Part shown: positions 9,726-62,828 of the stretch, one piece after another
How the letters are laid out: every line of letters begins with the position of its first letter
Position numbering within the stretch: position 1 is the stretch's first letter
DNA from: an uncultured Clostridia bacterium
Lineage (GTDB): Bacteria > Bacillota > Clostridia > UBA1381
DNA: 64,000 bases
Assembly: GCA_947591315.1 (NCBI GenBank)
Contig: CANQDD010000011.1
Span: 1 to 64,000, forward strand
Direction: 5' to 3'
Notes under the pieces: model-generated
The model's database searches: none
What the model was told of the DNA's origin: nothing
Seen by the model: only the letters and a program-made list of their open reading frames with translations
Position numbers and translations under genes: made by a program

Positions 9726-9886
9726 TGCGACATACTATACTTGTTCAGGCTTGCGCTTTGCCAATAAGCGCATGCTTTGATTTTTCATACCTGAGTAAGT
9801 AATTGTATGAAAGTGTGTCGCAGCATTTAATCAAGGTGGCGTTTTTGGAGTGCGCCGCTGTAGATTTATGCACGGCGCACTTTTTT
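9726..9886 (+). ncRNA. Structured RNA 3 (leader of the LRR surface-protein gene)
   Basis: The predicted transcript starts at a terminal helix, TGCGACATACT (9726-9736) with AGTGTGTCGCA (9812-9822). Inside are a second helix, ACTTGTTCAGG (9739-9749) with CCTGAGTAAGT (9790-9800), and an apical hairpin GCGCTT (9753-9758) with AAGCGC (9766-9771). After the terminal helix comes GGTGGCG-TTTTT, then a terminator GTGCGCCG (9850-9857) with CGGCGCAC (9873-9880) and six Ts. GTGGCG can also pair with CGCCGC, so two alternative hairpins are possible. The ribosome binding site of the LRR gene follows only about 15 bases later, so this may be an attenuator. It shares its build with the RNAs at 62471 and 62659. 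Confidence 0.62.
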
Positions 9887-9914
9887 ATTAAAATCACATA
9901 CGGAGGTTAAAATC

Positions 9915-12900
9915 ATGAAAAAAAGGCTACTCAGCGTACTATTGTCAGTATGTATGGTTACGGCAATACTGCCAACATTCAGCAGTACGGCGTTCGCGGC
10001 GGGTACAGTTACTCGAAGCGAGTGGATTTCTCGGCTTGTTGAAGCGTTCTCAATGACGGTGGAAAGCGACGACAATATGCCGGACAACTATTTCAGTGAT
10101 ATTTCTGAGGACGACAGTTGCTATCAGGATATACTGCTTGCGGTAGAGTTCGGCGTGATAGACCTTGAAGCGGGCGAGGCATTCGAGCCTGACGCGGACG
10201 CTACGCGTGAATTTGCGGCTCAGACACTCAACTCCTGCCTGATGTTCCAGCTTGACGAAGACGTGGAATACACATACAGTGAGGCAGACAGTGTTACATA
10301 TCCAGACGATATACAGGTTGCGGTCAATCGCGGTTGGTTTGCGCTTTCAGGCAAAAACTTCCTGCCAGAACAGGCAGTAACTGCATCTGAGGCGGATGCT
10401 ATGATAGCTGACGCAAAAGAGATTATTGCGGGTGATGTCATTGATGAAAACCATGAGAACACATATGAGTTCGCTGAAGGGGTTATAGAGATACCAGAAA
10501 CAGCAAACGCAGTTATTGACGCTGATAATACAGTCATAATCACAGATTATGACGCACAAATCAGTGAGGGTGATATATTTGTTGTATACGCAAGCGGTCT
10601 GCCTGTTGTATTGAAGGCGGTTACAGTTGAAACTGTTGATAACGTGACAACTGTCACTTCCACCACTGACGGTACAGAAGACGCAATTACATCTGCTGCT
10701 GCTGAGGGTGTAGCTGCTGTTGACCTTGAAGCCTTCCAAGCTGATGAAGTGAGTACATATTCAGTTATTGATACCTCTGATTCCAATGCTGAATACGAAG
10801 AACTGTCCATTGAACTGCAAAGCATTGAATATGATAAAAAGGCTAATAGACTTATTATGTCAAAAAGTGTTAAGCTCGGTTCGGCAGCAGTGGGCAGCAT
10901 AAATGTAACAATAAATGATTTTAAAGCTCCATATAAGGTTGACGTCCTTTTAGGCGAATATTCTATAGATATACTTGGTAATGCGGTTGTTACCACAAAT
11001 ATCAAGGTTGATTTTGGCGAATACGCGGGAATCCCATCAAGTATTCCACTTGGAACAATACCTGTAGCCGGTGTTGGAGATATTTCGCTTGAAATGCAGT
11101 ATTCACTTAAAGGTGATGTTACTGCAACATGGTCTGGCTATTTGGATACAGGAGCGTCATATTCCAGATTTAATGGCGGATTTAGAAATCATCTCAGCTT
11201 TGATAAAAAAGATTTTTCAATTTGTGCTAAAGCAGAATTGTCAGCAGGCTTAAAACTTTCTGCATCAATAAACCTGCTCAATATAGTAAAAGGCAGCGCG
11301 TGGATAACAAGTGGTGCAAGAATGAGTTTCAGTGCAACTGGATATAACAGCGGTACACCAAAGCTCTGTGTTACCACACAGGGATATTTGTATGCGTCAG
11401 CGGGAGTAAGTATTACGATAGACTATTTTCTTGACGCAAAAACATTCAGTAAGCCTATAGATATATATACAGCAAGCAACAGTCCTATACGCGTAGTGTA
11501 TCATTACGAGGATGACCAGCAAGTATCATCTTGTACGCGCGGTCAGAGCCTAAAATATACTACTTCCTACAACTCACACTATTTTAACCCATATTCGGGG
11601 CAAAGCTCATACGGCGGCGGAGGTGGCGCAGGAGGTACGGCTGAACCTGTTGTAATTTGGGAATACAAGGTAGAAAATGACGGTAATGCAACTATTACGA
11701 AGTATAGCGGTAATGCTTCGGCTGTTGTTATACCTGAAAAGATTGATGGATATACGGTTACGAAGATTGGTAATAGAGCTTTTGCAGATAATAAAATCGT
11801 ACGTTCTGTTACTATGTCAAATAATATTATAGCCATAGATAGTTCAGCATTTGGCGGCTGTATAAATTTAAGTAATGTACAATTATCGAAAAATATTACA
11901 GAGCTTGGAACCTATATATTCAATGGTTGTACATCACTATTAGAAATAGAAATACCGAAGTCGCTTACAACGGTTCATTTTGATTATAATAATAATGGTG
12001 CATTACAGGGCAGTAGCATAAAAACAGTCACTTTTGAGGAAGGCACAACACAGGTTGTTCCCCTATTGTGTAAAGGGGCAACAGAACTTGAAAATGTGAC
12101 TTTGCTGGATAGTATGACCAATATTGGTGGTAGTGCTTTTAATGGCTGTACATCATTAAAAAGAATTGATATACCTAATTCCATAACAACTATAGGCGAC
12201 AGGGCATTTCTTGGGTGTACGCAATTAGACAATCTTATTTTACCTGAGTATCTTACTAGTATAGAAGCCTATGCTTTTGAGGGCTGCTCATCTTTAAGCG
12301 AAATTAAAATACCAAACAGCGTGACAAAGATTGAAAACTCCACATTCAAAAATTGTGCAAAGTTAAGTAATGTTCAATTACCCGAACATATTACAAAAAT
12401 TGCTTCGAGTGCGTTTGAAGAATGTGCAGCATTAAATACAATAAACATTCCAAATAGTGTAACAAATATCGAAGCATCAGCATTTAAAAATTGTGATGAG
12501 CTTACAGAAATAAAGATAAATATGTCTGGAACAATAGGCACTCAAGCCTTTTATGACTGTGACGCGCTCACGACGCTTGAGCTTGGTGACGGAGTAACAG
12601 AGATAGGCAGTGAACTGTGTCGTGGCTGTGATAAGCTGTCTACGGTTAAATTAGGAAAATACATAACAACTATCCCAGATTCTGCTTTTAGGCTTTGTCA
12701 GAGCTTGGAAACGGTAACATTACCACGTTTCTGCATCACAGTAGCGGCAAATGCTTTTGCGGAAGATACAAAGCTGACAAGTTTCTATGCACCTGTAAGC
12801 GTATCGAAAATCGAAACAACTTCATTCTCATATCCAATGAAAATGACTATGTACGGCAAGTCGGGTTCATATGCTGAGGAATATGCGGGCTCAAGAAATA

Positions 12901-13871
12901 TGGCGTTCAACGCTGTCAATGCGCCAATAACGAGTATCAAGTATGCTGACAGCAGTATGAGTATCGCCAGAAATGCGACGGTCAGACCACAGCTTGATAT
13001 TGAGCCTGATTTTGACACCAGTGTTGTGACCTTTTCAACAAGTGACAACAAAATCCTCACTGTATCGGATACAGGTCTTGTAAAAGGCGTAAATTACGGT
13101 ACTGCTACAATTACGGCTACTGCTGATTCAGGTAAGAGTACATCCATAGAAATAACTGTTCTAAAGACAGCAACCAAGCTTGAACTTGACAAAACCTCTC
13201 TTTCGCTTGAACAAGGGCAGTCTGATACCTTGTCAGTTACCATGACACCCTCTGATGCTGCTGATAAGCTTAATTGGAGCAGCAGTAATTCTGAGGTGGC
13301 AACGGTTGACGAAAATGGCAAGATTACTGCTGTTGGTGTAGGTACGGCTGTTATCACTGTAACAGCGGAGTACAGCAGCGTGAGCGCAAGCTGCACTGTT
13401 GAGGTTGTCGGGGATGTTACAATCACAGCAAGCGCGGGCGAACATGGCAAAATTACCCCATCCGGCGAGGTTTCTGTAAAGAGCAACGCAAAAACCACAT
13501 TTGCCATAATTCCTGATTACGGGTATGTCGTAAAGGATGTACAGGTCAATGGTTCAAGCGTCGGAGCGGTAGAATCGTACACATTCAGCAATCCAAAAGA
13601 CAACGCGACAATTCACGCGGATTTTGCGGCTGTTAATGTGTCATACGAAAATGGCGATGTGGTAATTACCTCAGAAGCTAAGCTGGATAATCTGAAGCTG
13701 ATTATCGCGGAGTACAATGATGATAACAGTCTTGTGGATTGCAAAATTGAGACGGTTACAGCTGAACCCAACGTGGAACATCATGTGTCGGTATCCCCAA
13801 CTGGTAAGTATAAGCTTATGCTCTGGAGCAGTATGGATACCATGAGACCAGTGTGGGCATCGGGGAATTAA
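9915..13871 (+). CDS. BspA-like leucine-rich-repeat surface protein with SLH-like and Big2 domains
   Basis: A 1318-residue secreted protein and the main cargo of the element. In order: signal peptide (1-29, ending AFAA), an SLH-like anchoring region (about 30-180), a beta-rich region with little similarity I can name, BspA-type LRR_5 repeats (about 578-990, with recurring ITxIGxxAFxxCxxLxxIxIPxS), two Big2 immunoglobulin-like domains (about 1007-1165), a repeat domain around GEHGKITPSGEVSV, and a C-terminal module ending KLMLWSSMDTMRPV. BspA-type proteins act as adhesins or glycan- and host-binding proteins. The gene has an ACGGAGG site just behind a terminator-like RNA element, which suggests conditional read-through. 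Its tail module recurs in the cargo gene at 53605. Confidence 0.85.
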   Translation: MKKRLLSVLLSVCMVTAILPTFSSTAFAAGTVTRSEWISRLVEAFSMTVESDDNMPDNYFSDISEDDSCYQDILLAVEFGVIDLEAGEAFEPDADATREFAAQTLNSCLMFQLDEDVEYTYSEADSVTYPDDIQVAVNRGWFALSGKNFLPEQAVTASEADAMIADAKEIIAGDVIDENHENTYEFAEGVIEIPETANAVIDADNTVIITDYDAQISEGDIFVVYASGLPVVLKAVTVETVDNVTTVTSTTDGTEDAITSAAAEGVAAVDLEAFQADEVSTYSVIDTSDSNAEYEELSIELQSIEYDKKANRLIMSKSVKLGSAAVGSINVTINDFKAPYKVDVLLGEYSIDILGNAVVTTNIKVDFGEYAGIPSSIPLGTIPVAGVGDISLEMQYSLKGDVTATWSGYLDTGASYSRFNGGFRNHLSFDKKDFSICAKAELSAGLKLSASINLLNIVKGSAWITSGARMSFSATGYNSGTPKLCVTTQGYLYASAGVSITIDYFLDAKTFSKPIDIYTASNSPIRVVYHYEDDQQVSSCTRGQSLKYTTSYNSHYFNPYSGQSSYGGGGGAGGTAEPVVIWEYKVENDGNATITKYSGNASAVVIPEKIDGYTVTKIGNRAFADNKIVRSVTMSNNIIAIDSSAFGGCINLSNVQLSKNITELGTYIFNGCTSLLEIEIPKSLTTVHFDYNNNGALQGSSIKTVTFEEGTTQVVPLLCKGATELENVTLLDSMTNIGGSAFNGCTSLKRIDIPNSITTIGDRAFLGCTQLDNLILPEYLTSIEAYAFEGCSSLSEIKIPNSVTKIENSTFKNCAKLSNVQLPEHITKIASSAFEECAALNTINIPNSVTNIEASAFKNCDELTEIKINMSGTIGTQAFYDCDALTTLELGDGVTEIGSELCRGCDKLSTVKLGKYITTIPDSAFRLCQSLETVTLPRFCITVAANAFAEDTKLTSFYAPVSVSKIETTSFSYPMKMTMYGKSGSYAEEYAGSRNMAFNAVNAPITSIKYADSSMSIARNATVRPQLDIEPDFDTSVVTFSTSDNKILTVSDTGLVKGVNYGTATITATADSGKSTSIEITVLKTATKLELDKTSLSLEQGQSDTLSVTMTPSDAADKLNWSSSNSEVATVDENGKITAVGVGTAVITVTAEYSSVSASCTVEVVGDVTITASAGEHGKITPSGEVSVKSNAKTTFAIIPDYGYVVKDVQVNGSSVGAVESYTFSNPKDNATIHADFAAVNVSYENGDVVITSEAKLDNLKLIIAEYNDDNSLVDCKIETVTAEPNVEHHVSVSPTGKYKLMLWSSMDTMRPVWASGN

Positions 13872-13884
13872 AAACCAAATCTAC

Positions 13885-13914
13885 GGGAGCACGGAAATGT
13901 CGTGCTCCCTTTTT
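13885..13914 (+). terminator. Terminator of the LRR surface-protein gene
   Basis: GGGAGCACG pairs with CGTGCTCCC across a 7-base loop, followed by five Ts, 11 bases after the stop codon. Confidence 0.88.
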
Positions 13915-14161
13915 GTGTAGAAAGTTTTGACCTCATTTTTGAGGTTGTAAATATAAACATAAGGGGTATGTCAATTTTGACGTTTTTGCCGTTAAAAAAG
14001 TAAGTGTTTATGCGGGTTTCAGAACTATAAATATCTTATAAATGAGGACATTATATGTAGAGAAAAAGCATATCGCAATTCAAGCGATATGCCTTTTCTT
14101 GTACCCTGTCCGACAGCCTGTCATAAAATTATTGATTATACTGTCTTATGTCATGCCATCG
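13910..14161. repeat. Element right-end repeat, copy 1
   Basis: About 250 bases from TTTTTGTGTAGAAAG to GTCATGCCATCG, repeated at 36849-37087 and 54754-55005 with only scattered changes. It contains a hairpin, GCATATCGC with GCGATATGC, between an A-rich and a T-rich run, looking like a bidirectional terminator. It ends in TACTGTCTTAT, a near inverse of the left-end ATAAAACAGTA. Copies 1 and 3 share 12 further bases (GTCATGCCATCG) that copy 2 lacks. It marks the right end of this family of elements. Confidence 0.85.
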
Positions 14162-14164
14162 TGC

Positions 14165-14178
14165 GATACGCTCTTTTT
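14165..14178 (+). terminator. Right arm of the split ilvD terminator
   Basis: GATACGCTCTT followed by Ts is the exact complement of the arm at 4346-4356. It now lies downstream of the element and can no longer pair in an ilvD transcript unless the element is excised. Confidence 0.75.
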
Positions 14179-14201
14179 GGTTTGAGTGGTATGTTGAACC
14201 A

Positions 14202-14352
14202 TGGTTAGCCTCCCCTTGAGGGGAGGTGGCATTTGCGAAGCAAATGACGGAGAGGTGGTAAATGACAACTTTAACAGCCACCTCTCAGTCGCTTTCAGCG
14301 ACAGCTCCCCTCAAGGGGAGCCACACGCGGGCGAACACGGTTCGCCCCTACA
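14202..14352. repeat. MITE-like palindromic repeat R1
   Basis: A non-coding stretch with terminal inverted repeats of the CTCCCCTTGAGGGGAG type (left arm near 14205, right arm near 14305-14325), internal small palindromes such as GCGAAGC, and a following GCGGGCGAACACGGTTCGCC module near 14326. Related composites lie at 20313, 32517 and 60310. No gene is seen in it. Confidence 0.75.
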
Positions 14353-14366
14353 ATTCCAAATTTATC

Positions 14367-16508
14367 TTACAGCTTCAAAATCTTTGTATCGAACGCGCCG
14401 AGAGTGACGGTCTTATCGCCGAACTCGGTTTTTACGGTCGTTGTCTGCTCGGTGTCGCTGTTATTTATCACAACGAGCTCCTTACTGCTCGGATAGTACG
14501 CGCACTCGCACCAGAGGTTATCGGTGATGTAATTCTGATCCATGCCCTCGCCCGTATTTTTGAGAATAAGGCTCATCAGCATACGCGTGTTCTTTTCATT
14601 CACGGTGAAGCTCGCAAGGTACACGCCCGCGCCCTTGCCGAACGCGTGACGCGCCACAACGGGTACGCCGTCCTTTTCCGCCGCCACAACCGTATCCGCG
14701 TCGATGAGGTAAATTCCCTCGTTCACCTTGAACGAGTCCTTATCCTGCACACACGCGCAGTTTGTCGGCTCGAACGTGTAGCGTCCGTGACAAATTCTCG
14801 CACCGGTGTCCTCGTCAACGCCGAGTACGTGAGCCATTTTGAAGTACGTGTCGCTGCCGCCGACAGCCGACGGCTCATTTACGCCGATGAACACGCCGCC
14901 GTCGTAAACCCATTTTGTGAGCGTCGAAACCACCTTTTCATCGTTCCAGCACTCGCCGCCCGACCACGCGCTGCCCGCTTTGCCGGCGTTTATGACAACA
15001 TCGAAGTTTTCGAGCTTACCCGCCTTCACGTCCTCGAAGCTGATAAACTCAACGTCGAACGGAAGTCCCGAAAGCGCCTCGTTCACATTTATGAGGTCAA
15101 CTTCGGGGTGCTCGTGGTAGTGACCGGAGCATGTCCACGAGCGGAGGCTGCCCCAGAAGTGCAGCACCGCTATTCTCGGCTTTAACACATACGGCTTGCC
15201 CTCGGTGTGCAGCGCGCGTATCTCGCGGAACTCGTCCGATATTTTTTCTATATAGTCGTTGAAGTCGGGGAACGGCAGCGTCAGCGACAGGTAGCCGCCC
15301 AGACCTATTCTGTCAATCTTGTCGCGGAGAAGTGCGCGGCGCACATTTTTCCAGTAGCCCTGTGCCTCCTTCGTCGGGTTGCCGCCCTCCATGAATGTCG
15401 GCGCACCGCCGAGGCCCACGGGGAACAGATACGGGTGAAGTCTTATCTCATGCGTTTCAACCGCGTCAACGCCCGCGCACAGGCGTGTCTCAAAGCCGTT
15501 GAACACGCACTTTATAAGTCCGTCGAAGCCGAAATCCTTAAATCTCTTGCCCCACGGCTCAACGCCTACCCACGAATCGTCGTAGAACACGTACGCCTTT
15601 TTGCCGTAATCGTGAACGAGGTCAACAAGCTGCTTGCCGAAGTCAACGACAAAATCGTTCACAAACTCCATCCAGTCAATTTTCGATTTCGGCGCGGTCA
15701 TGTGCGTCGCGTGGAGATTTCCCTTATTTATGAAGTCCTCGGACGTAATTCTGTAGCCGTACTTCTTCTCAAATTCTTTGAGCGCAAGCGGCGAAACGGT
15801 AAAGTCGTACGAACCCCAGTCGGAGAAAAGCTGCTGATTGCGCGGGTTTGAACCCCAAATCCATACAAAGTTGTAGAACATGGACGTGAAGCGCACAACG
15901 GTCGTCGCCGGGTGCGTCTCGCACCAGTTTTTGAGCCAGTCGAGCATGAATTTCTGCGTTTCGGGATAGCGCGGATCTATCTGCATGAGATGCTCCTTGT
16001 CCCAGTTGTTCGTCGTGTGGTTGTACATCGAGATTTCCTCCCATATACGCCACGCGAGGAAGTTTACCGTGTACTTGTGGAACGGAGTGATGTTCTTAAT
16101 CGTGACCTTGCCGTCCGCGTACGACCAGTCCTTTATCTCCTCGTTCGTCGTGCGGTCGAACACCTGCCAGTACTCCTTTGACTCCTCGCTGTCGTTCAGC
16201 CTGAACTGATCCGCGAAAAAGTCCTTCATAAGGTCTATCGTAAGGCTCGTGTCCGTCGCGACGATCGGATTTGTCATGAGGAACGTCTGCTGGAGCTTGT
16301 CCGGATTTGCCTTCGCCCACTCGTTATGGTCGCGGATAATGCAGATAGTCGAGTAAATGCCGTAGCCCGCGTTGATTATTTCGGGTGAAAGCTCCGTGCC
16401 GTCGGAGTCGCGTATTACGTCCGCGCCCCATTTTTCAGCCATTTGAAGCGTAAGCTCCTCATATCCGCTCTCGCCCGGAAGTGTGAAGCCGCCTGTTGTT
16501 TTTGCCAT
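14367..16508 (-). CDS. gnpA: GH112 1,3-beta-galactosyl-N-acetylhexosamine phosphorylase
   Basis: A 713-residue cytoplasmic phosphorylase that splits galacto-N-biose or lacto-N-biose with phosphate to galactose 1-phosphate and the N-acetylhexosamine. The start MAKTTGGFTLPGESGYEELT, the segment WGADVIRDSDGTELS, the IYSTICIIRDHNEWA strand and the HFWGSLRSWTCSGHYHE region are hallmarks of GH112, and the length is normal. Some GH112 enzymes prefer galactosyl-rhamnose, which cannot be excluded from reading alone. An AGGAGAGAG site precedes the ATG. No sugar transporter or N-acetylhexosamine kinase lies beside it. Confidence 0.9.
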   Translation of the reverse strand: MAKTTGGFTLPGESGYEELTLQMAEKWGADVIRDSDGTELSPEIINAGYGIYSTICIIRDHNEWAKANPDKLQQTFLMTNPIVATDTSLTIDLMKDFFADQFRLNDSEESKEYWQVFDRTTNEEIKDWSYADGKVTIKNITPFHKYTVNFLAWRIWEEISMYNHTTNNWDKEHLMQIDPRYPETQKFMLDWLKNWCETHPATTVVRFTSMFYNFVWIWGSNPRNQQLFSDWGSYDFTVSPLALKEFEKKYGYRITSEDFINKGNLHATHMTAPKSKIDWMEFVNDFVVDFGKQLVDLVHDYGKKAYVFYDDSWVGVEPWGKRFKDFGFDGLIKCVFNGFETRLCAGVDAVETHEIRLHPYLFPVGLGGAPTFMEGGNPTKEAQGYWKNVRRALLRDKIDRIGLGGYLSLTLPFPDFNDYIEKISDEFREIRALHTEGKPYVLKPRIAVLHFWGSLRSWTCSGHYHEHPEVDLINVNEALSGLPFDVEFISFEDVKAGKLENFDVVINAGKAGSAWSGGECWNDEKVVSTLTKWVYDGGVFIGVNEPSAVGGSDTYFKMAHVLGVDEDTGARICHGRYTFEPTNCACVQDKDSFKVNEGIYLIDADTVVAAEKDGVPVVARHAFGKGAGVYLASFTVNEKNTRMLMSLILKNTGEGMDQNYITDNLWCECAYYPSSKELVVINNSDTEQTTTVKTEFGDKTVTLGAFDTKILKL

Positions 16509-16588
16509 GTTTCTCTCTCCTTTGCATAAAATATCTTAATAGATTTATTTTACCATATTTTTATTCCGTTGTAAATAGTTTAAGCAAT

Positions 16589-16611
16589 AAAAAAGACGGT
16601 GTAAAACCGTC
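16589..16611 (-). terminator. Terminator after eutP
   Basis: GACGGT pairs with ACCGTC over a short loop and is followed on the minus strand by six Ts. Confidence 0.85.
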
Positions 16612-16616
16612 CTGTC

Positions 16617-17069
16617 CTATTCCTCCCACGGCATAACGTCGCCGTCCTCTCGGAGATAATCTATAATCTGCCACACGCCCTCACCCGTTTTCGAGTCAAC
16701 GCGGAACACCTTCTCACAGCCCGCAAGTTTAAGCCAATGCTCCGCAAGCTCCACGTGCGCGTCGGGCTCGTTTATCTGCGTCACTATTCCTATAACCGGT
16801 CTGTTCGCGACCGGCGTCACTGCGGGCGGGTACAATGAGTACGGCTCTCTCGCGCTTATGAGCATACCCACGACGTCCGCCTCAAACGTGTACATCGCGA
16901 TTGCGTTGCCGAGGTTTTTCGTCTGTATGTATTCTCCGGGCGTGTCTATTATCACGTCGAAACGGTTCACGTACTGCGTCTTGTGATAATGTATCTTCTC
17001 GCCCTTTAACGCCTGCGTGAGCGTCGTTTTACCGCATTCGCTCCTGCCGACGAGTATTATCTTTTTCAT
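16617..17069 (-). CDS. eutP: EutP/PduV-like small GTPase
   Basis: A 150-residue P-loop protein of the EutP/PduV family found in bacterial microcompartment loci. The P-loop is GRSECGKTT (residues 8-16), switch II is DTPGEY (about 43-48), and the usual NKxD base-recognition motif is replaced by TQIN. PduV is reported to associate with shells and help place them in the cell. Its start overlaps the end of the BMC-shell gene by 4 bases, so the two form a coupled pair. No other microcompartment gene is in the window. Confidence 0.88.
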   Translation of the reverse strand: MKKIILVGRSECGKTTLTQALKGEKIHYHKTQYVNRFDVIIDTPGEYIQTKNLGNAIAMYTFEADVVGMLISAREPYSLYPPAVTPVANRPVIGIVTQINEPDAHVELAEHWLKLAGCEKVFRVDSKTGEGVWQIIDYLREDGDVMPWEE

Positions 17070-17443: not shown

Positions 17444-17502
17444 ACGAAACATTCCTTTCCGTATCTATTGTAACACATTCCGCTTTATTTTTCCATAGGT
17501 TT

Positions 17503-17958: not shown

Positions 17959-17959
17959 T

Positions 17960-18928: not shown

Positions 18929-18940
18929 ACCGAAAATCCT

Positions 18941-19426: not shown

Positions 19427-19428
19427 TG

Positions 19429-53580: not shown

Positions 53581-53604
53581 GATTTAAAATAATTTAAGCC
53601 TATA

Positions 53605-54753: not shown

Positions 54754-55005
54754 TTTTTGTGTAGAAAGTTTTAACCTCATTTTTCGAGGGTAGGAATATA
54801 AACATAAGGGGTATGGCGATTTTGGCGTTTTGCCGTTAAAAAGGTAAGTGTTTGTGCGGGTTTCAGAACTATAAATATCTTATAAATGAGGACATTATAT
54901 GTAAAGAAAAAGCATATCGCCATTCAAGCGATATGCCTTTTCTTGTACCCTGTCCGACAGCCTGTCATAAAATTAGTGATTATACTGTCTTATGTCATGC
55001 CATCG
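54754..55005. repeat. Element right-end repeat, copy 3
   Basis: About 250 bases matching 13910-14161, including the hairpin with GCATATCGC and GCGATATGC and the end TACTGTCTTATGTCATGCCATCG split as TACTGTCTTAT plus GTCATGCCATCG. The host sequence begins after 55005. The 255 bases between the cargo stop and this repeat (54499-54753) show no gene or clear signal. Confidence 0.85.
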
Positions 55006-55027
55006 GAAGCGGTAATTTTTTTATTAT

Positions 55028-55825: not shown

Positions 55826-55930
55826 ATCGCACTCTTCCTTTCAATGCTCTTTAAGCAGATTTATCATATTACAAATATTTTACACTAATTTGCACAAAAA
55901 ATATATACAAAAAGCCGATATAAATGTTCA

Positions 55931-55967
55931 AAAAAACGTAATGACCTTCCCGCGCGGGAAGGTCATT
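55931..55967 (-). terminator. Terminator after the amino-acid ABC permease
   Basis: On the minus strand AATGACCTTCCCG pairs with CGGGAAGGTCATT over a single base, followed by ACGTTTTTTT. Confidence 0.8.
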
Positions 55968-55975
55968 GCAGGTCG

Positions 55976-56782
55976 CTAATGTATACTTTCTACCGAAATC
56001 GAAAGCCGTTTTTCAAGCATATTAAACAGCAGCGTGAGGATAAGCGTGATAACGAGATACACGACCGCCGCTATGATAAGCGCGTCAACCCTCATCGTCT
56101 TGTTCATGTTCTGCTTTGCCGCCGTCATAAGGTCAACGAGCGAGATTGAGTACGCGAGCGCGGTATCCTTTACGAGGACGATCGTCTCGTTCGCGATAGG
56201 CGGTATGACCGTCCGTATCATCTGCGGCACGACAATGTATACCATCGTCTGTATACCGCCCAGTCCGAGAGCCTTCGACGCCTCGTACTGTCCCTTGTTG
56301 ACGCCGATTATTCCGCCGCGGAATATCTCGGCAAAGTACGCCGCGTAGTTGAGCGTGAACGCGACGAGCGCCGCCGTAAACGCGTCGGGTACTATGCAGA
56401 ACGCGCCTGCCGCCGCAGCGCTTTCACGCACCGTTATGTGCAGAAACTGCAGCACGGGCACCACCGCTCCGGGAAGCTGTATAAACGGCAGTCCGAAGTA
56501 GAAAAAGAACAACTGAAGCATCAGCGGCGTACCGCGGAATACCCAAAGATACAGGCTTATAATGAACCTTATCGGCGCCTTTATTACCTTTACAAAGCCC
56601 CTGTCGGTCGGCTTTGCCGATACTCCCTCTCTTATGAGGGACACCAAAAGTCCCAGCGGGAGCGACAGGGCAAGCGTCCATATGAACAGCTTAAGCGTGA
56701 TAAGGAAGCCCCTGCCCAGCGTCGGCAAAAGCGACTCTATGTATGCCGCAAATCCCGATATATTCGATATAAACGCGGTCAT
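55976..56782 (-). CDS. Polar amino acid ABC transporter permease
   Basis: A 268-residue HisM/GlnP-type permease. The YLWVFRGTPLMLQLFFFYFG segment and the EAA loop (QYEASKALGLGGIQTMVYIV) are typical of permeases for polar amino acids. It lies directly after the binding-protein gene with one base between. No ATPase gene follows, so the ATPase must be supplied from elsewhere. Confidence 0.92.
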   Translation of the reverse strand: MTAFISNISGFAAYIESLLPTLGRGFLITLKLFIWTLALSLPLGLLVSLIREGVSAKPTDRGFVKVIKAPIRFIISLYLWVFRGTPLMLQLFFFYFGLPFIQLPGAVVPVLQFLHITVRESAAAAGAFCIVPDAFTAALVAFTLNYAAYFAEIFRGGIIGVNKGQYEASKALGLGGIQTMVYIVVPQMIRTVIPPIANETIVLVKDTALAYSISLVDLMTAAKQNMNKTMRVDALIIAAVVYLVITLILTLLFNMLEKRLSISVESIH

Positions 56783-56783
56783 T

Positions 56784-57623
56784 TTACTTTATAAGGTCCT
56801 CGCCAAACCACTTCTTTGATATTTCGGAGGTGATACCCTCTTCCTTACACTCGTCGAGAGCCTTGTTGATTGCTTCCATGAACGAGTAGTCGCCGAGTCT
56901 GCCGCCTACGCCGTAATCCTCCTCGTCAAAGCCCTCGTCGAGAACCTTGAACTGGTCGGACATTCCGTGCTGCTCGAGATAGTATCTTACGAATACCTCG
57001 TCGATAACTGCAGCGTCAGCTCTGCCCGCCTGTACCTCCATAAGCACGAGCGAGTTTTCGTCGAAACGTACAAGGTTGTCCTCGCCGATTGTAGCGAATG
57101 TCTCCTCGTCCTTCTTAAGAGCCTCTTCCGAGGTCGAACCGCCCTGGAGCGCAACCTTCTTGCCCGCGAGGTCAGCCTTTGTAGCTATATCCGAATCCGC
57201 TCTTACAATGATTGACTGCTTCGTTGAGAGGTACGGGTTAGAGAAAAGAACCTCGGTACGTCTCTCGTCGCTTATCGAGAAGCCGTTCCAGATTACGTCG
57301 ATCGAACCCGATGAAAGCTCAAGGTTCTTTGAATCCCAATTTATCGGCTGTACCTTAAGCTCAACGCCCATCTTCTCCGCAACGGCGTTCGCAAGGTCGA
57401 TGTCGAAGCCGACAATCTCATTGTTGTCGTCTCTGAATCCCATAGGCGCGAAATCCGCGTCAAGACCGAGCGTGAAATAGCCCTGCTCCTGTATCTTTTG
57501 GAGCGAATCATCTGTAACCGCCGTGTCCGCCTTCTCCGGCTCCGCGTTCTGTCCGCCACAGCCCGCAAGCGCCGATACGCTCAAAAGCGCCGCAAGTCCT
57601 ATTGATAAAATCTTTTTGTTCAT
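56784..57623 (-). CDS. Amino acid ABC transporter substrate-binding lipoprotein
   Basis: A 279-residue SBP_bac_3 protein with lipobox ALAGCGG and the family pattern FTLGLDADFAPMGFRDDNNE, GFDIDLANAVAEKMG, ISDERRTEVLFSNPY and LEVQAGRADAAVIDE-like strands. Relatives bind glutamine, cystine or other polar amino acids; the specificity cannot be read. It is the first gene of a two-gene unit with the permease. AAAGGAGA lies before the ATG. Confidence 0.92.
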   Translation of the reverse strand: MNKKILSIGLAALLSVSALAGCGGQNAEPEKADTAVTDDSLQKIQEQGYFTLGLDADFAPMGFRDDNNEIVGFDIDLANAVAEKMGVELKVQPINWDSKNLELSSGSIDVIWNGFSISDERRTEVLFSNPYLSTKQSIIVRADSDIATKADLAGKKVALQGGSTSEEALKKDEETFATIGEDNLVRFDENSLVLMEVQAGRADAAVIDEVFVRYYLEQHGMSDQFKVLDEGFDEEDYGVGGRLGDYSFMEAINKALDECKEEGITSEISKKWFGEDLIK

Positions 57624-57728
57624 GTGTTTTGTCTCCTTTTTATTAAATTACTCAACTATTATACTTCATTCTGTTAAATTAGTAAAGTGTTTTTTTTAAT
57701 TTTATGAAAATTTATGTCTCCGGCATAA

Positions 57729-57757
57729 CAAAAAAGACGCCGAAGCGTCTTTTTTTC
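57729..57757 (-). terminator. Terminator after the SLH-NlpC gene
   Basis: AGACGC pairs with GCGTCT over a CGAA loop, with As before and seven Ts after it, eight bases after the stop. Confidence 0.88.
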
Positions 57758-57764
57758 ATTATCC

Positions 57765-59087
57765 TCAAATTACCCTTTTACCGCCTATAAATCTTGACTG
57801 ATAATAAGACGAGTCGATTGACGTGTACTGAACCACCTCGCCGGTGTGGGGAGAGTGAATCATCATACCGTCGCCCACGTACATACCGACGTGCGACGCG
57901 TAGTCGCCGCTGCCGAAGAACACGAGGTCGCCCGGCTCAAGCTGAGCTCTCGACACGTACGTTCCCGGTCCGTGAAGCTGGTCGTCGGCAACTCTCGGTA
58001 TCGAAATACCGTTCAGGCTGCATACATACTGCACAAATCCCGAGCAGTCAAATCCCGAAGGACTTGTGCCGCCCCATACGTACGGTACACCGAGATAATC
58101 GTCAGCAGTATCAAGCATGTTGCCCGCAATCGGATTCTCTGCTATGTACTCTTCATTTGCAAGCGGAGCCTTTGACTTATATTTGAAGTCAACGGGGAGG
58201 CTGTAAACCTCGCTGCCGTCCGAAAGCACCGCGCCTACCGTTATCGAATAATCTCTGTCAACCTCGAGTGAAGCGCCTTCTATTGTAACGCTGTTCTCGT
58301 CATACACGTCCGAAAGAAGTACCGAGTCGGCGTCCGCGTCCTTAATAATTACGTGATACGCCCACGCACTGTCTATCGGCGTCCATGCTACCGAGAAGTC
58401 ACCCTCCTCGATTTCGGCTCCGTCCTCGGGAAGCGTTATTTCCGGAAGAGCAAGCGTGTAATCGGTGTCGCTGAACTTATTGTATAAACGGTTGATACTC
58501 GATATAGCCTGTTCTCTTGTCGTCGAACCGAGAGGGGCGAAATTTTTGTCGTCAACTCCGTTCATCAATGAGTAGTTTATCATTGTAATGACCGAAGGCT
58601 TAGCCCAGGAGCTGACCTCGTCCGAGTCGGCGAACGCGTCGATTACGTACGCGTCCTCATATCCGTCCGAAAGGTTAAAGGAAACCTCGCTCGCCGTAAG
58701 CGTGCTTACGAGCATTGTCGCCATTTCCTCTCTTCTTACAAGTCTGTCGGGAGTAAACGTTCCGTCACCCGTGCCCGAAACAATACCGTAGGCGTAAGCC
58801 TGCGATACCGCTACGGAATCGGTATCGTTAAACGGTGATACCGGAGGCTCGATCATATCTTCTCCCGTAAGCTTTTCGTAAAGATTTACAGCAAGCTCGC
58901 AAAATTCCTCACGCGTTATACTGTCATGAAGATTGTTCGATACAACCGAGTATGATACGAGGCCCGCCTCGTTAGCCTGCTGATAATCGGATATCGCCCA
59001 GCCGCTTAAATCAGCCGCCAGAGCCGACGTGCCAAGCACCGCTGACATAGATATAACAGATAAGATAATCTTTTTCGTAATATTCAA
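57765..59087 (-). CDS. SLH-domain cell wall hydrolase with NlpC/P60 domain
   Basis: A 440-residue secreted peptidoglycan hydrolase. A signal peptide (ending TSALAAD) is followed by SLH repeats (about 25-200, with GIVSGTGDGTFTPDRLVRRE), a fibronectin-like domain (about 205-300) and a C-terminal NlpC/P60 peptidase (about 320-440) with catalytic Cys in GFDCSGFVQYV and His in YASHVGMYVGDG. It should cut wall peptides while bound to the wall polymer. The start is TTG 59087 with GGAGAG 8 bases upstream; a frame extending to 59114 runs over that site. Confidence 0.9.
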   Translation of the reverse strand: MNITKKIILSVISMSAVLGTSALAADLSGWAISDYQQANEAGLVSYSVVSNNLHDSITREEFCELAVNLYEKLTGEDMIEPPVSPFNDTDSVAVSQAYAYGIVSGTGDGTFTPDRLVRREEMATMLVSTLTASEVSFNLSDGYEDAYVIDAFADSDEVSSWAKPSVITMINYSLMNGVDDKNFAPLGSTTREQAISSINRLYNKFSDTDYTLALPEITLPEDGAEIEEGDFSVAWTPIDSAWAYHVIIKDADADSVLLSDVYDENSVTIEGASLEVDRDYSITVGAVLSDGSEVYSLPVDFKYKSKAPLANEEYIAENPIAGNMLDTADDYLGVPYVWGGTSPSGFDCSGFVQYVCSLNGISIPRVADDQLHGPGTYVSRAQLEPGDLVFFGSGDYASHVGMYVGDGMMIHSPHTGEVVQYTSIDSSYYQSRFIGGKRVI

Positions 59088-59194
59088 GATAAAATCTCTC
59101 CTTCTCAATTCCAAAGATGTTTCCTATACGTTCGCATTGTGTTTGGTTATCCGTGTGAATGTGTTTCTCTGCGTTTTTCCTTGACGCTGAATGT

Positions 59195-59223
59195 ATTGTA
59201 ACACTTTAAAAAAAAGCTGTCAA
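59195..59223 (-). promoter_or_regulatory. Promoter of the SLH-NlpC gene
   Basis: On the minus strand TTGACA (59218-59223) and TACAAT (59195-59200) with exactly 17 bases between; the leader is about 100 bases. The rest of the gap, 59224-59582, is very A/T-rich; I see no gene in it. Confidence 0.82.
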
Positions 59224-59582
59224 GCCTTTTTGACTTAAAAATGTTAAGAATCTTAAAATTTTCGTATTATTTTTGTCATTTGAATGTAATTTACCTGAAA
59301 TAATCACGTAATTTTACCGAAATATTACGATATTTTGTTTACCGATTTTACATTTTATTCCATTTTTTGTTTACATAAAAAAGTTAACCTCCACAAAATC
59401 TTGACAATTTTTTTGAAAAGTATCTACATATTGAGAAAATTATGGTGAAATCAACGAAAGATATTACAAATTGATTACATTTTTTTAAGAAGTTGTGAAG
59501 GAATTGATACAACTCGCTGTGCTATGCGATTTGTGAGGCATATTTTTCCAAAAAAATTTCTTAAAAAATATTGACACGCAAT

Positions 59583-59614
59583 AAAAAACTCCGCCGCGAA
59601 ACACGTCGGCGGAG
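59583..59614 (-). terminator. Terminator after the PHP-domain gene
   Basis: CTCCGCCG pairs with CGGCGGAG over a 10-base loop, with six As on the plus strand giving a T-run on the minus strand. Confidence 0.88.
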
Positions 59615-59627
59615 CATATAAAGCTTA

Positions 59628-60269
59628 TCACGGGAGCGGTATACCGAGCTTTTGCAGAAGCTCGTTCGCGCGGCGCACCTGTTTTTTGCGGTACTCGTTT
59701 ACCGCGTGAGTGTCCGAACCCACCGACACGGGTATGCCGCTTTCCTTTACGGCGCGCTGCTTTTTTTCGTTCGTGAGGAAATCATAATAATATATGTAGT
59801 TTCCCGACGTGTTAAGCTCCCAGAAAATATCGTTGTCGCGCATCACCTTTAACATATCCGCGCCGTAACGCTCGCCGAGCTTAAATATATCGGCGTGCGC
59901 CAGCCCGACCTTGCACTTGAACAGCCTGCGCCACTCCAGAAACTCGTAAAAATCCATCGCGCGCTCATCGTCGAGGCTCTCGAACAGCACATAGTCGAAC
60001 ATCTCCGTCGCGCGCGGCAGACTTTCGGGCGGCGCGGGACGCGTTCCTATCTCGAGACCGCACAGCACGCGTATCCTGTCGGCGTATTTAAGCTGACAAT
60101 GGCGGATATGGCGGTAATACGCAGGCAGATTTTCGCCTATCGAGAATTGGTGATCGGTGATTCCGATAACGTCCACGCCGCAGTTTATCGCGTTTTCAAT
60201 TATTTCCTCCGGCGTGTTTGAACCGTCGTAGCTGAAAACCGTATGATTGTGCAGGTCAACCGTGTACAT
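59628..60269 (-). CDS. PHP-domain phosphoesterase-like protein
   Basis: A 213-residue PHP-family protein, with metal ligands in DLHNHTVFSYDG, ITDHQFS, GLEIG and VSVGSDTHAVNEY, the layout of PHP phosphoesterases such as YcdX and histidinol-phosphate phosphatase relatives. The substrate is unknown. The start is ATG 60269 with GGGAGG 7 bases before; an in-frame extension runs into a repeat and is rejected. Transcribed alone. Confidence 0.88.
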   Translation of the reverse strand: MYTVDLHNHTVFSYDGSNTPEEIIENAINCGVDVIGITDHQFSIGENLPAYYRHIRHCQLKYADRIRVLCGLEIGTRPAPPESLPRATEMFDYVLFESLDDERAMDFYEFLEWRRLFKCKVGLAHADIFKLGERYGADMLKVMRDNDIFWELNTSGNYIYYYDFLTNEKKQRAVKESGIPVSVGSDTHAVNEYRKKQVRRANELLQKLGIPLP

Positions 60270-60309
60270 CGAAATCCCTCCCTTTTGTGATATATTTGCG
60301 CCGCAGAGG

Positions 60310-60543
60310 CCAACGGGCGACCGCAATGGCCGCCCCTACGTATGCGGGACGTCGAGGCGCCGTCCCCTACACCCGTATTTTATAAATTTATGCGCCGTAG
60401 GGGCTGGCGCCCTCGACAGCCCGTTGAAAGGCTCCCCTTGAGGGGAGCTGTCGCCGCAGGCGACTGAGAGGTGGTTTTGAAAATTCGTTGCCACCTCTCC
60501 GTCATCGCTTCGCGATGCCACCTCTCCTCAAGGAGAGGCTAAC
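60310..60543. repeat. MITE-like palindromic repeat R4
   Basis: A gene-free block between the PHP gene and the phosphosugar mutase with three modules: GGGCGACCGCAATGGCCGCC, a GACGTCGAGGCGCCGTCCCC / GGGGCTGGCGCCCTCGAC pair around an AT-rich centre, and inverted arms CTCCCCTTGAGGGGAG and CTCTCCTCAAGGAGAG with GAGAGGTGG sequences. The same modules occur at 14202 and 32517 in other combinations. Confidence 0.78.
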
Positions 60544-60591
60544 GATTTGCCGAAAATAATGGAACTTTCTTCTTATATAATATATCGCCTA

Positions 60592-62328
60592 TCAGTTAAG
60601 TCCAAACTGTTCCTTACAATCTGCGAGAACCTTCTCAATCTCCGCTGTCGCGGCCTCAAAGCTATCGGCGAATGTGCCGAGATAAATCTTAATTTTCGGC
60701 TCCGTACCCGACGGACGAACGATGAAGTACGTCTTGTCGTCCGACAGGTTGTACTTCAGCACGTTCGACTTGGGCAGTCCCGTAAGCGGCTTAACATTGC
60801 CCTTTGTGTCCTTGACCGTCTGCGACTGATAGTCGGTGTAAAGCACAATATCCATACCGGCAGCCTTTACGGGCGGATTTTCGCGCAGACCCTTAAGCAG
60901 CGCAGCCATTTTCTCCATGCCGTCCTTGCCGGGCATCGTGAACGAAACGGTCTTTTCCGCGTAATAGCCGTATCTCTTGTACACGTCCATAAGCGCCTCG
61001 TAAAGCGACATGCCCTTTGTCTTGTAGTACGCCGCCATTTCCGCGATAAGCATTGTCGCGACAACGCCGTCCTTATCGCGCGCATGCGTGCCGACGAGGT
61101 AGCCGTAGCTTTCCTCGAAGCCTATTAAATAGGTATGGTTCTTCTTCTCGGCAAACTCGGTCATCTTTTCGCCGATATACTTAAAGCCGGTGAGCACGTT
61201 CATGACCTCAACGCCGTAGCTCTCGGCGATCGCAGCCGCAAGCTCGGTCGTTACGATTGTCTTTATAACAACGCCGTCGGCGGGAAGAACACCCTTTTCC
61301 TTCTTCGAGCGGAGAATGTACTCAACGAGAAGCGCACCCGTCTGGTTACCGGTGAGCGTTCTGTAAACGCCGTCCGCGTCGCGGACAACGATACCTACGC
61401 GGTCGCAGTCGGGGTCTGTGCCGATGATAACGTCAACGTCGTTCTGCTTCGCCATTTCGATAGCGATATCGAACGCCTCTTTATTTTCGGGGTTCGGCGA
61501 AACGACCGTCGGGAAATTGCCGTCCTCGGTATCCTGCTCCTTAACGACAAGCACATTCTTGAAGCCGATACGCTTCAAAATTGCCTGTACCGGACGCGAA
61601 CCCGTGCCGTGGAGCGGAGTGTATATGAGCTTAAACGTGTCGGCAACAGCCGTAACCGCCTCGGGGTTCTGCTGCTGCGTCTGCACAACGTCTAAAAATT
61701 TCTCGTCAAGCTCGCTGCCGGGAATTTCGAGCAGTCCCTTTTCCTTCGCCTCGTCGAGCGAGATATACTTTACGTCGTCAAATATGTCGTAGCTGTTTAT
61801 CGCCGCGACAACAACGTCAGCCGCGTCGGGCGGAAGCTGACCGCCGTCGGGACCGTAAACCTTGTAGCCGTTGTACTCCTTCGGGTTGTGGCTCGCGGTA
61901 ATCATAACACCCGCCGCGCAGCCCAATTCTCTTATTCCGAACGAAACCTCCGGCACGGAATGTACTATCGGGAACAAATACGCCTTAACGCCCGCCGCGG
62001 TCAGAACCTTAGCCGTTTCCTCGGCGAACACGCGCGAGAAATTACGCGTGTCGTAGCCGATAAGCACGCCCGCCTTCGCCGCGTCCTCACCTCTCGACTT
62101 AACGTACTTCGCGACGCCCTGGCTCGCCTGGCGCACGTTGTAGATGTTCAGTCTGTTCGTACCGGCGCCGAGTATGCCTCTCATACCCGCCGTGCCGAAC
62201 TCAAGGTCGCGGTAAAAACGCTCCTCTATCTCCTTTTCGTTGTCCGCAATGGCGCGGAGCTCCGCCTTTGTGTCGTCGTCAACAGCGTCGCTCGTCAGCC
62301 AGCGGTTATATGTTTCCTTGTAACCCAT
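60592..62328 (-). CDS. pgcA: Phospho-sugar mutase (phosphoglucomutase type)
   Basis: A 578-residue alpha-D-phosphohexomutase. The catalytic phosphoserine loop is VMITASHNPKEYNGYKVY, the metal-binding loop GTDPDCDRVGI, the sugar-specificity loop FEESYGYL and the phosphate-binding loop VRPSGTEPKIKIY. Length and motifs fit the PgcA/PGM2 group that interconverts glucose 1- and 6-phosphate; phosphomannomutase or phosphoribomutase activity is possible. GGAGGAT precedes the ATG. Confidence 0.92.
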   Translation of the reverse strand: MGYKETYNRWLTSDAVDDDTKAELRAIADNEKEIEERFYRDLEFGTAGMRGILGAGTNRLNIYNVRQASQGVAKYVKSRGEDAAKAGVLIGYDTRNFSRVFAEETAKVLTAAGVKAYLFPIVHSVPEVSFGIRELGCAAGVMITASHNPKEYNGYKVYGPDGGQLPPDAADVVVAAINSYDIFDDVKYISLDEAKEKGLLEIPGSELDEKFLDVVQTQQQNPEAVTAVADTFKLIYTPLHGTGSRPVQAILKRIGFKNVLVVKEQDTEDGNFPTVVSPNPENKEAFDIAIEMAKQNDVDVIIGTDPDCDRVGIVVRDADGVYRTLTGNQTGALLVEYILRSKKEKGVLPADGVVIKTIVTTELAAAIAESYGVEVMNVLTGFKYIGEKMTEFAEKKNHTYLIGFEESYGYLVGTHARDKDGVVATMLIAEMAAYYKTKGMSLYEALMDVYKRYGYYAEKTVSFTMPGKDGMEKMAALLKGLRENPPVKAAGMDIVLYTDYQSQTVKDTKGNVKPLTGLPKSNVLKYNLSDDKTYFIVRPSGTEPKIKIYLGTFADSFEAATAEIEKVLADCKEQFGLN

Positions 62329-62435
62329 CGAATTATCCTCCTTGAAATTTCTTGTAGATAATTAGATTATACCACCGCTCCGCACATTTTTCAATTATTA
62401 TATATGTAAAATTTGGCGACTTATTATAGTATAAA

Positions 62436-62464
62436 TTGACAAATAGCGGCTTCAATGGTATAAT
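62436..62464 (+). promoter_or_regulatory. Promoter of structured RNA 1
   Basis: TTGACA (62436-62441) and TATAAT (62459-62464) with a 17-base spacer: a perfect sigma-A consensus. The RNA's closing helix starts 7 bases after the -10 box. Confidence 0.88.
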
Positions 62465-62470
62465 AATTGG

Positions 62471-62616
62471 GCAACACAAATCTCTATATATTTTTGCCCA
62501 AAAGCGCATACACTGTAAAAAAACGTATGCCTTAATAATTCGCGCTTTGCGGGTATTGATTTGTGTTGCAGCAAAAGGCGGCGTTTTTATGCGCCGCAGC
62601 GCGGCGCATTTTTTTT
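62471..62616 (+). ncRNA. Structured RNA 1
   Basis: The predicted 146-base transcript opens with GCAACACAAATC (62471-62482), perfectly complementary to GATTTGTGTTGC (62558-62569), a 12-bp closing helix. Inside, AAAGCGC pairs with GCGCTTT and GCATAC with GTATGC. After the closing helix GCAGCA leads to GGCGGCG-TTTTT and a terminator, ATGCGCCGC (62589-62597) with GCGGCGCAT (62601-62609) and a T-run. No open frame fits. A perfect promoter, helix at the start site and terminator make an RNA gene very likely. The class is not one I recognise; a 6S-like role was considered. Confidence 0.75.
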
Positions 62617-62624
62617 ATTTTGTA

Positions 62625-62653
62625 TTTACAACCGGCGGTAAATATGATATAAT
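62625..62653 (+). promoter_or_regulatory. Promoter of structured RNA 2
   Basis: TTTACA (62625-62630) and TATAAT (62648-62653), spacer 17. About 35 bases around it are nearly the same as the promoter at 63151, before the VbhA-Fic pair. Confidence 0.82.
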
Positions 62654-62658
62654 AAGGA

Positions 62659-62828
62659 TTGCGGTACAATAATTTAATAATAGTTATAATGACTTATTAT
62701 TATGTAAAAAACGTCCGCTTTTTGGACAGTGTTTTTTACGTGTCATTGTAGCTATATTAAGTTGTACCGCAATACAATTAAATATATAAAGCGGCGTTTT
62801 TTATGCGCCGCATTGCGGCGCATTTTTT
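62659..62828 (+). ncRNA. Structured RNA 2
   Basis: The predicted 170-base RNA opens with TTGCGGTACAA (62659-62669), pairing perfectly with TTGTACCGCAA (62762-62772). A second long helix joins 62674-62693 to 62742-62760 (AATGAC with GTCATT at its inner end), and a third joins GTAAAAAAC to GTTTTTTAC with an apical GTCC/GGAC. The result is a long rod with an asymmetric bulge of about ten bases. After it comes GCGGCG-TTTTTT and the terminator ATGCGCCGC (62803-62811) with GCGGCGCAT (62815-62823) and Ts, nearly the same as in RNA 1. The AbrB/zinc gene starts 36 bases later. Confidence 0.72.

What the first reader, a model, noticed from the sequence alone, without database searches (positions are those of the whole stretch)
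9726..62828. A three-member family of structured RNAs with the same build and a shared end module
Three separate loci (9726-9886, 62471-62616, 62659-62828) have the same order: near-consensus sigma-A promoter with a 17-base spacer, a closing helix of 11-12 bp that starts 6-7 bases after the -10 box, a branched or rod-like interior, then G(C/T)GGCG-TTTTT, a CGCCGC strand and, in the terminator, a GCGGCG or CGGCGCAC strand with a T-run. The middle CGCCGC strand can pair with either neighbour, as in an expression platform. Interior sequences differ, while the helices are kept, which argues for structure. I cannot match it to a known class; a riboswitch, an attenuator or a 6S-like regulatory RNA are all open.
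Basis: partly seen in the sequence, partly recalled or inferred. Interest (0 to 1): 0.78.

Follow-up and report, generated by a model that had tools for sequence, protein, structure and literature searches.

The report
Widespread unnamed clostridial RNA attenuator family
The three look-alike RNA loci belong to a large, apparently unnamed family of folded RNA leaders in Clostridia that seem to stop or allow transcription of the next gene, often one for a secreted surface protein, by a strand-swapping switch.

Summary
A covariance model built without the 62-kb pair finds all three loci (window E 8.6e-20, 3e-6, 5.5e-4; next best 0.51). Nothing at the RNA reaches an Rfam 15 gathering score in the window or in 20 distant loci. 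The model hits 47 of 70 genomes of the family and 68 of 391 sampled from the class, but only the own genome among 398 sampled from the phylum, with up to 22 copies per genome. New here: the linker strand opening the end module pairs either with an internal strand (pseudoknot) or with the middle strand (antiterminator); both pairings co-vary in a partner-swap test. Otherwise the middle strand forms the terminator. Of 105 cores, 65 have a ribosome-site-led ORF within 150 nt of the terminator, median 31 nt. BspA-type leucine-rich-repeat proteins were the commonest Pfam class (12 of 43 tested). I read it as a cis-acting transcription attenuator, probably an orphan riboswitch-like class. Unit 3 is weak genome-wide (E 0.02). 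The signal is unknown, no transcript was seen, and the published SLH motif could not be compared.

The parts
9691..9719 (+). Unit 1 sigma-A-like promoter (TTTACA, 17 nt, TACAAT)
   Evidence: the same placing, -10 box ending 5 or 6 nt before the core, in 91 of 106 cores
9726..9846 (+). Unit 1 RNA core: P1 9726-9736/9812-9822, variable P2, P3 hairpin 9751-9772, to the first T-run
   Evidence: R2 hit 111.4 bits, E 8.6e-20; pair counts on relatives
9773..9782 (+). Unit 1 interior strand TGCTTTGATT, pseudoknot partner (PK1) of 9829-9838
   Evidence: 10 pairs, p 0.01 against shuffles (row L001); column scan and pair counts
9829..9841 (+). Unit 1 strand A (AATCAAGGTGGCG): pairs with the interior (PK1) or with strand B (antiterminator)
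   Evidence: A:B 7-bp stack p 0.005; swap tests over the family
9850..9886 (+). Unit 1 terminator: 9850-9857 with 9873-9880, T-run from 9881; 9853-9859 is the part of B that can pair with A
9915..13871 (+). Gene after unit 1, 1318 aa: BspA-type LRR_5 repeats and Big_2 domains; GGAGG at 9902-9906
62436..62464 (+). Unit 2 promoter (TTGACA, 17 nt, TATAAT)
62470..62588 (+). Unit 2 RNA core: P1 62471-62482/62558-62569; hairpin around 62504-62530; short PK1 TGCCTT 62528-62533 with AAGGCG
   Evidence: R2 E 3e-6 in the window, 1.1e-4 in the genome; PK1 not significant by itself, p 0.14 (row L041)
62573..62616 (+). Unit 2 strand A (62573-62583), strand B 62589-62597, strand C 62601-62609, T-run
   Evidence: A:B p 0.035 (row L041)
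62625..62653 (+). Unit 3 promoter (TTTACA, 17 nt, TATAAT), between the unit 2 terminator and unit 3
62659..62801 (+). Unit 3 RNA core: P1 62659-62669/62762-62772; CCGCTTT 62715-62721 can pair with AAAGCGG 62788-62794 (PK1)
   Evidence: R2 E 5.5e-4 in the window, 0.02 in the genome; PK1 p 0.06 (row window)
62788..62829 (+). Unit 3 strand A (62788-62796), strand B 62803-62811, strand C 62815-62823, T-run
   Evidence: A:B p 0.015 (row window)
62864..63112 (+). Gene after unit 3, 82 aa: small protein with weak MazE/AbrB-like and zinc-ribbon-like matches, under the Pfam cut-offs; AGGAGG at 62850-62855

Best explanation
Each unit is a self-contained switchable expression cassette: a sigma-A-type promoter that starts the transcript at the closing helix P1, a folded sensor core, and a transcription terminator just before a gene. 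Strand A (AAUCAAGGCGGCG-like), directly after P1, has two possible partners. If the core is folded, the interior strand GCUUUGAUU holds A in a pseudoknot (PK1); the middle strand B is then free, pairs with strand C, and transcription stops. If PK1 does not hold, A pairs with B as an antiterminator, C is left alone, and RNA polymerase reads into the gene. A signal that stabilises or breaks the core (small molecule, ion or protein; not identified) would set the outcome. Shown by computation: the family, P1, P2 and P3, the potential for PK1, A:B and B:C with co-variation, the promoter position and the gene position. Inferred: that these pairings exchange during transcription, that PK1 means OFF, and that there is a signal.
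For: Model specificity: 47 of 70 family, 56 of 95 order and 68 of 391 class genomes, own genome only among 398 of the phylum. Pairing: P1 95.4%, P3 97.0%, PK1 96.6%, P2 68.0% of cells in 40 sequences; 87.3% overall against 30.0-49.0% when slid, covariation score reached by 0 of 500 shuffles. Partner-swap test: own A:B better than the mean of swapped partners in 83 of 92, PK1 in 63 of 87, P1 in 87 of 88. A:B better than shuffles (p<0.05) in 76 of 102 tails, PK1 in 65 of 102, terminator -8 kcal/mol or better in 101 of 102. Antiterminator and terminator nearly equal in energy, medians -15.1 and -16.1. Promoter of at least 9/12 in 91 of 106 cores against 9 of 105 further upstream. Ribosome-site-led ORF within 150 nt after the terminator in 65 of 105, 50 of them within 48 nt, which leaves little room for another promoter; divergent ORFs on the promoter side in 22 of 104.
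Against: No transcript, probing or reporter data. 40 of 105 cores had no ORF by my rule; by my reading at least 15 of them are upstream copies in tandem arrays, but some have no near gene at all. In the tandem pairs each copy has its own promoter, odd for a simple leader. PK1 shows a both-side change at only 1 of 8 pairs in the 40-sequence alignment, is not significant in 37 of 102 single sequences, and is not significant for window units 2 and 3. The swap-test sequences are related, so its p-values overstate. Downstream proteins share no pathway, and 17 of 43 tested had no Pfam family over its cut-off.
Confidence: 0.75

Rival explanations
1. Free-standing trans-acting small RNA genes: the promoter-to-terminator transcript is the product and acts elsewhere; the genes downstream are incidental.
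For: Fixed start at P1 and own promoter; own strong terminator; tandem complete units, each with a promoter in the window; 40 of 105 cores without an ORF by my rule.
Against: 65 of 105 lead to an ORF against 22 of 104 on the other side, median 31 nt; the co-varying A:B antiterminator has no use in a plain sRNA.
Confidence: 0.12
2. A dispersed mobile repeat whose terminators happen to lie before genes ('mobile attenuators' in the sense of PMC2965389, section 12).
For: Several copies per genome; in this genome unit 1 and the start of its gene are also found on contig C3, where the ORF is only 91 aa.
Against: Paired changes on both sides across genera; fixed promoter and gene-side bias; no hit in three narrow viral-contig patterns or in one BLAST query each of phages and plasmids.
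Confidence: 0.05
3. A motif already in print outside Rfam, such as the SLH riboswitch candidate (PMC6429828) or one of the 2017 set of 224 motifs (recalled; paper not held).
For: The SLH motif also lies before surface-protein genes and occurs in Clostridia. One of 43 tested proteins here has SLH domains (L175).
Against: The SLH motif is about 60% before SLH-domain genes and also in Synergistaceae and Negativicutes, with 80 examples; here LRR_5 is the commonest class (12 of 43). Its sequence model is in a figure that is not held, so no direct test; Negativicutes and Synergistaceae were not searched as such.
Confidence: 0.06
4. 6S-like global regulatory RNA.
For: Rod-like fold and own promoter.
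Against: No Rfam hit at gathering score; up to 22 copies per genome; terminator/antiterminator design.
Confidence: 0.01

Closest known systems
SLH motif riboswitch candidate (PMC6429828; section 13 and passages read)
   Same: Candidate cis-regulatory RNA before surface-protein genes; reported in Clostridia.
   Different: About 60% before SLH-domain genes, 80 examples, also Synergistaceae and Negativicutes. Structure model not available here, so identity neither shown nor excluded.
Pseudoknotted terminator-type riboswitches, such as the fluoride class (recalled; abstract start of PMC8752731 seen in the listing)
   Same: A pseudoknot to a strand outside the aptamer helix controls a terminator.
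   Different: No Rfam match at gathering score; other sequence, longer rod; predicted sign is OFF when the pseudoknot forms; ligand unknown.
c-di-GMP riboswitches (recalled)
   Same: Recalled to act before secreted and surface genes in Clostridia, with terminator platforms.
   Different: No Rfam match; 8 of 41 RNA-bearing genomes show no GGDEF domain (genomes 67-92% complete).
Mobile attenuators of insertion sequences and BIMEs (PMC2965389, section 12 read)
   Same: Related terminators before unrelated genes.
   Different: Here a promoter, a pseudoknotted core and an antiterminator are kept together with paired changes.
6S RNA
   Same: Rod-like RNA with its own promoter.
   Different: No Rfam hit; terminator switch; many copies per genome.

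Membership tests
Cis-acting transcription attenuator | Intrinsic terminator between promoter and gene | tested here: met
   Terminator -8 kcal/mol or better in 101 of 102 tails; ORF within 150 nt in 65 of 105
Cis-acting transcription attenuator | Conserved antiterminator exclusive with the terminator | tested here: met
   A:B and B:C share B; swap test 83 of 92
Cis-acting transcription attenuator | Regulated readthrough | not testable with these tools
   No expression data
Riboswitch | Conserved structured core with a platform that shares a strand | tested here: met
   for PK1 by itself the support is weaker than for P1 and A:B
Riboswitch | Direct binding of a ligand | not testable with these tools
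   Needs probing
Ribosome-mediated leader-peptide attenuator | Short ORF with a ribosome site in the leader | tested here: not met
   139 ATGs in the 3' halves of the cores, 1 with a ribosome-site-like 4-mer upstream
6S RNA and every other Rfam 15 family | Covariance-model match at gathering score | tested here: not met
   Window and 20 distant loci. Lowest sub-threshold E in the window: tsr25 at unit 3, 30.8 bits against 63, E 8.8e-5
SLH motif (PMC6429828) | Match to its consensus | not testable with these tools
   Model only in a figure; no Rfam name for it was seen
c-di-GMP riboswitch | Host makes c-di-GMP (GGDEF domain) | tested here: inconclusive
   33 of 41 RNA-bearing genomes have GGDEF, 8 do not; genomes incomplete

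The most novel reading that the evidence does not exclude
A previously unnamed, widespread riboswitch family of Clostridia: a pseudoknotted aptamer fused to its own promoter, used as a portable, often tandem ON/OFF cassette that sets which surface LRR proteins and small regulators a bacterium makes in response to one unknown signal.
Probability: 0.45. Interest if true: 0.87.

Novelty: new variant of a known kind. Interest (0 to 1): 0.74.

Why it matters
A structured RNA found in 68 of 391 sampled genomes of the class, with up to 22 copies in one genome and no Rfam 15 match, would be a common orphan regulatory RNA of gut-type Clostridia. It would tie one unknown signal to secreted BspA-type LRR proteins, stalk-domain and cell-wall-active proteins, and small DNA-binding-like proteins. 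The strand map gives directly testable mutations. The portable design (promoter plus switch, repeated in tandem) is unusual for a riboswitch-like element.

Tried and rejected
Loose end-module pattern over 61 genomes: 38 genomes match, but by my sum of the rows there are 143 matches against 128 for the reversed control (own genome 14 against 3), so it is not used as evidence. Covariance model R1 had P2 one column out of register; R2 replaced it and R1 was never searched with. A second possible pairing, interior UCAUAC with GUAUGA 3' of P2: mean best stretch 6.3 bp against 5.2 shuffled, p<=0.05 in only 5 of 40, and to my reading incompatible with a full P2; left open. c-di-GMP as the signal: disfavoured, not excluded. 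Leader peptide: not met. Mobile or viral carriage: three viral-contig patterns and one BLAST query each of phages and plasmids, all empty; these are narrow probes. Sub-threshold Rfam listings (tsr25 E 8.8e-5, SprD 4.4e-4, GcvB 0.0015; others) were judged chance: under the gathering scores and different from locus to locus. Literature: listings; passages of PMC11109978, PMC8632094, PMC2864571, PMC6429828; section 13 of PMC6429828; abstract and section 12 of PMC2965389. The 2017 paper with 224 motifs (identifier recalled) is not held. My statement that the family is unnamed rests on these word searches and on Rfam 15.

Rows dropped. Of the 44 sites, 4 were left out by eye as chance (L091, L092, L105, L117: no promoter or P1 seen). 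Of the 50 distinct cores, alignment A2 used 40; left out were L078 (mis-anchored), L075, L080, L081, L083, L115, L121, L129 and the two 62-kb units. In one search, 2 of 107 had no terminator by my rule. One search used 102 of 107, 95 of 107. Pfam was run on 43 of 63 distinct downstream proteins and on five further window ORFs. 'Signal peptide' is my reading of N-termini; no predictor was run. Tandem and 'upstream copy' counts are my reading.

Full report
WHAT WAS CHECKED. The three loci are as described: promoters, 17-nt spacers, closing helices and end modules sit at the stated places. Rfam 15 gives nothing at gathering score in the 64-kb window. Around the loci the permissive search lists only sub-threshold matches, the lowest E being tsr25 at unit 3 (30.8 bits against a gathering score of 63, E 8.8e-5) and none consistent between loci. 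The genome (2.34 Mb, 85% complete) holds three more copies of the unit-1 type at 82-95% identity. The exact end-module pattern occurs six times there against none for the reversed pattern.

RELATIVES. BLAST over 61 genomes found unit-1 relatives in 14 (the own genome included) and a full-length match to the 62-kb pair in G008 (93%) and G005 (90%); the other matches to that pair are short pieces. A pattern scan of GTDB genomes gave 44 sites in 43 stretches, of which I kept 40 by eye; 37 of the 43 records bear the label Lapin, which I take to mean rabbit gut, titled uncultured Clostridia or Monoglobus.

STRUCTURE. From 40 distinct relatives of unit 1, a scan of all column pairs ranks the closing helix P1 first and then an 8-bp pairing between an interior strand (CUUUGAUU) and the linker 3' of P1. 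The latter crosses P1, so it is a pseudoknot, PK1. Counts on this alignment: P1 95.4%, P3 97.0% and PK1 96.6% of cells paired; P2 68.0%, with changes on both sides at all 11 pairs. Sliding the partners drops pairing from 87.3% to 30.0-49.0%; 0 of 500 shuffles reach the covariation score and 1 of 500 the number of pairs with both-side changes. PK1 by itself has a both-side change at only 1 of 8 pairs there, so it leans on the wider set below. On 54 model hits, some of them seed members, 96.6% of cells pair and 26 of 27 pairs show both-side changes; that alignment is fitted to the model, so it is partly circular.

FAMILY TEST. Model R2 was not trained on the 62-kb pair, yet finds unit 2 at E 3e-6 and unit 3 at 5.5e-4 in the window; genome-wide these are 1.1e-4 and 0.02. 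R2 hits 47 of 70 genomes of the family at E<=1e-3, 56 of 95 of the order and 68 of 391 drawn from the class at E<=1e-4, and 28 of 60 relatives of G357, with up to 22 copies in one genome. These sets overlap. Of 398 genomes drawn from the phylum only the own one is hit, which serves as a specificity control. Twenty distant loci show no Rfam gathering match at the RNA (a tRNA and an L10 leader lie elsewhere in two of them), and 16 of them searched permissively only sub-threshold ones.

END MODULE. In 102 tails of the 107 distinct cores, strand A (the linker) pairs with strand B after the T-run better than shuffles (p<0.05) in 76, PK1 in 65, and the terminator is -8 kcal/mol or better in 101. In the window A:B has p 0.005, 0.035 and 0.015 for units 1, 2 and 3, and PK1 p 0.01, 0.14 and 0.06. 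The partner-swap test, which keeps composition and motifs, puts own A:B above the mean of swapped partners in 83 of 92, PK1 in 63 of 87 and P1 in 87 of 88; the sequences are related, so the p-values printed there overstate. A is thus claimed by two structures, and so is B. Antiterminator and terminator are nearly equal in energy, medians -15.1 and -16.1 kcal/mol, the terminator being the more stable in 64 of 95. This is the layout of a transcription attenuator whose input is the pseudoknot.

POSITION. The -10 box ends 5 or 6 nt before the core in 91 of 106 cores, and a promoter of at least 9/12 is present in 91 of 106 against 9 of 105 in a stretch 200-260 nt upstream. Transcription should therefore start at P1. 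Downstream, 65 of 105 cores have a ribosome-site-led ORF within 150 nt of the terminator (median 31 nt, 50 within 48 nt) against 22 of 104 divergent ORFs on the promoter side. Of the other 40, by my reading at least 15 are upstream copies in tandem arrays, several have a visible start codon that my rule missed, and some have no near gene.

GENES. Of 43 downstream proteins tested, 26 have a Pfam family over its cut-off: 12 BspA-type LRR_5 (the 1318-aa window protein among them), 6 Cu_amine_oxidN1 (two of these with LRR_5), 2 CHAP, 2 DUF6273, 2 MazE_antitoxin, and one each SLH, LytTR, DUF6809 and GLUG. The other 17 have none; the window's 62864 protein is among them, with a weak MazE match. Many N-termini look like signal peptides by eye. 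No shared pathway is apparent, so no signal can be named. c-di-GMP, proposed in print for another surface-gene RNA, is disfavoured: 8 of 41 RNA-bearing genomes show no GGDEF domain, though those genomes are only 67-92% complete.

MECHANISM. Committed reading: a cis-acting terminator/antiterminator switch with pseudoknot input; PK1 formed means OFF (direction inferred). A fixed start and tandem complete units make each copy a portable promoter-plus-switch. A free-standing sRNA is the main rival and would leave the conserved A:B pairing unexplained. What the core senses is open; recurring motifs that look unpaired (TTAATA-like before P2 in 66 of 107 against 19 in shuffles, A-rich P3 loop in 77 of 107 against 12) are where a ligand or protein might bind.

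NOVELTY. No Rfam 15 family, and nothing in the word searches and passages listed under Tried and rejected. The SLH motif of 2019 and the 2017 motif set could not be compared by sequence beyond what Rfam holds of them. I rate it a new, unnamed variant of a known kind (pseudoknot-controlled attenuator or orphan riboswitch candidate), with its wide spread in the class as the main surprise.

Noticed in passing
window 63202-63983: After the 62864 gene lies a 55-codon ORF (no Pfam family) and a Fic/DOC-domain protein (63366-63983, Fic E 8.2e-17), an arrangement that recalls toxin-antitoxin pairs (recalled, not tested).
   Followed up: partly
L002 (G000:C3), L062 (G018:C27): The unit-1 RNA together with the first codons of its gene recurs on another contig of this genome, there before an ORF of only 91 aa with the same N-terminus, and in G018, as if leader and signal-peptide segment were copied together.
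   Followed up: partly
L196, L200, L201 (own genome): Weaker R2 hits in the own genome (E 1.5e-4, 0.022, 0.043) are followed by near-identical small ORFs beginning M(N/D)(E/D/K)YEEMYK.
   Followed up: no
L178, L180, L183: Small ORFs after distant copies share the start IDxTGIxLxPGN and look cysteine-rich; Pfam has no family for the two tested, L178 and L183.
   Followed up: no
cores, interior UCAUAC and GUAUGA 3' of P2 (first strand at window 9785-9790 in unit 1): A second complementary pair that seems to change together in several subgroups but competes with P2; possibly an alternative fold (p<=0.05 in 5 of 40).
   Followed up: partly
L093, L099, L103, L126: Copies followed not by a gene but by similar G+C-rich repeat-like DNA, perhaps another dispersed repeat.
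   Followed up: no
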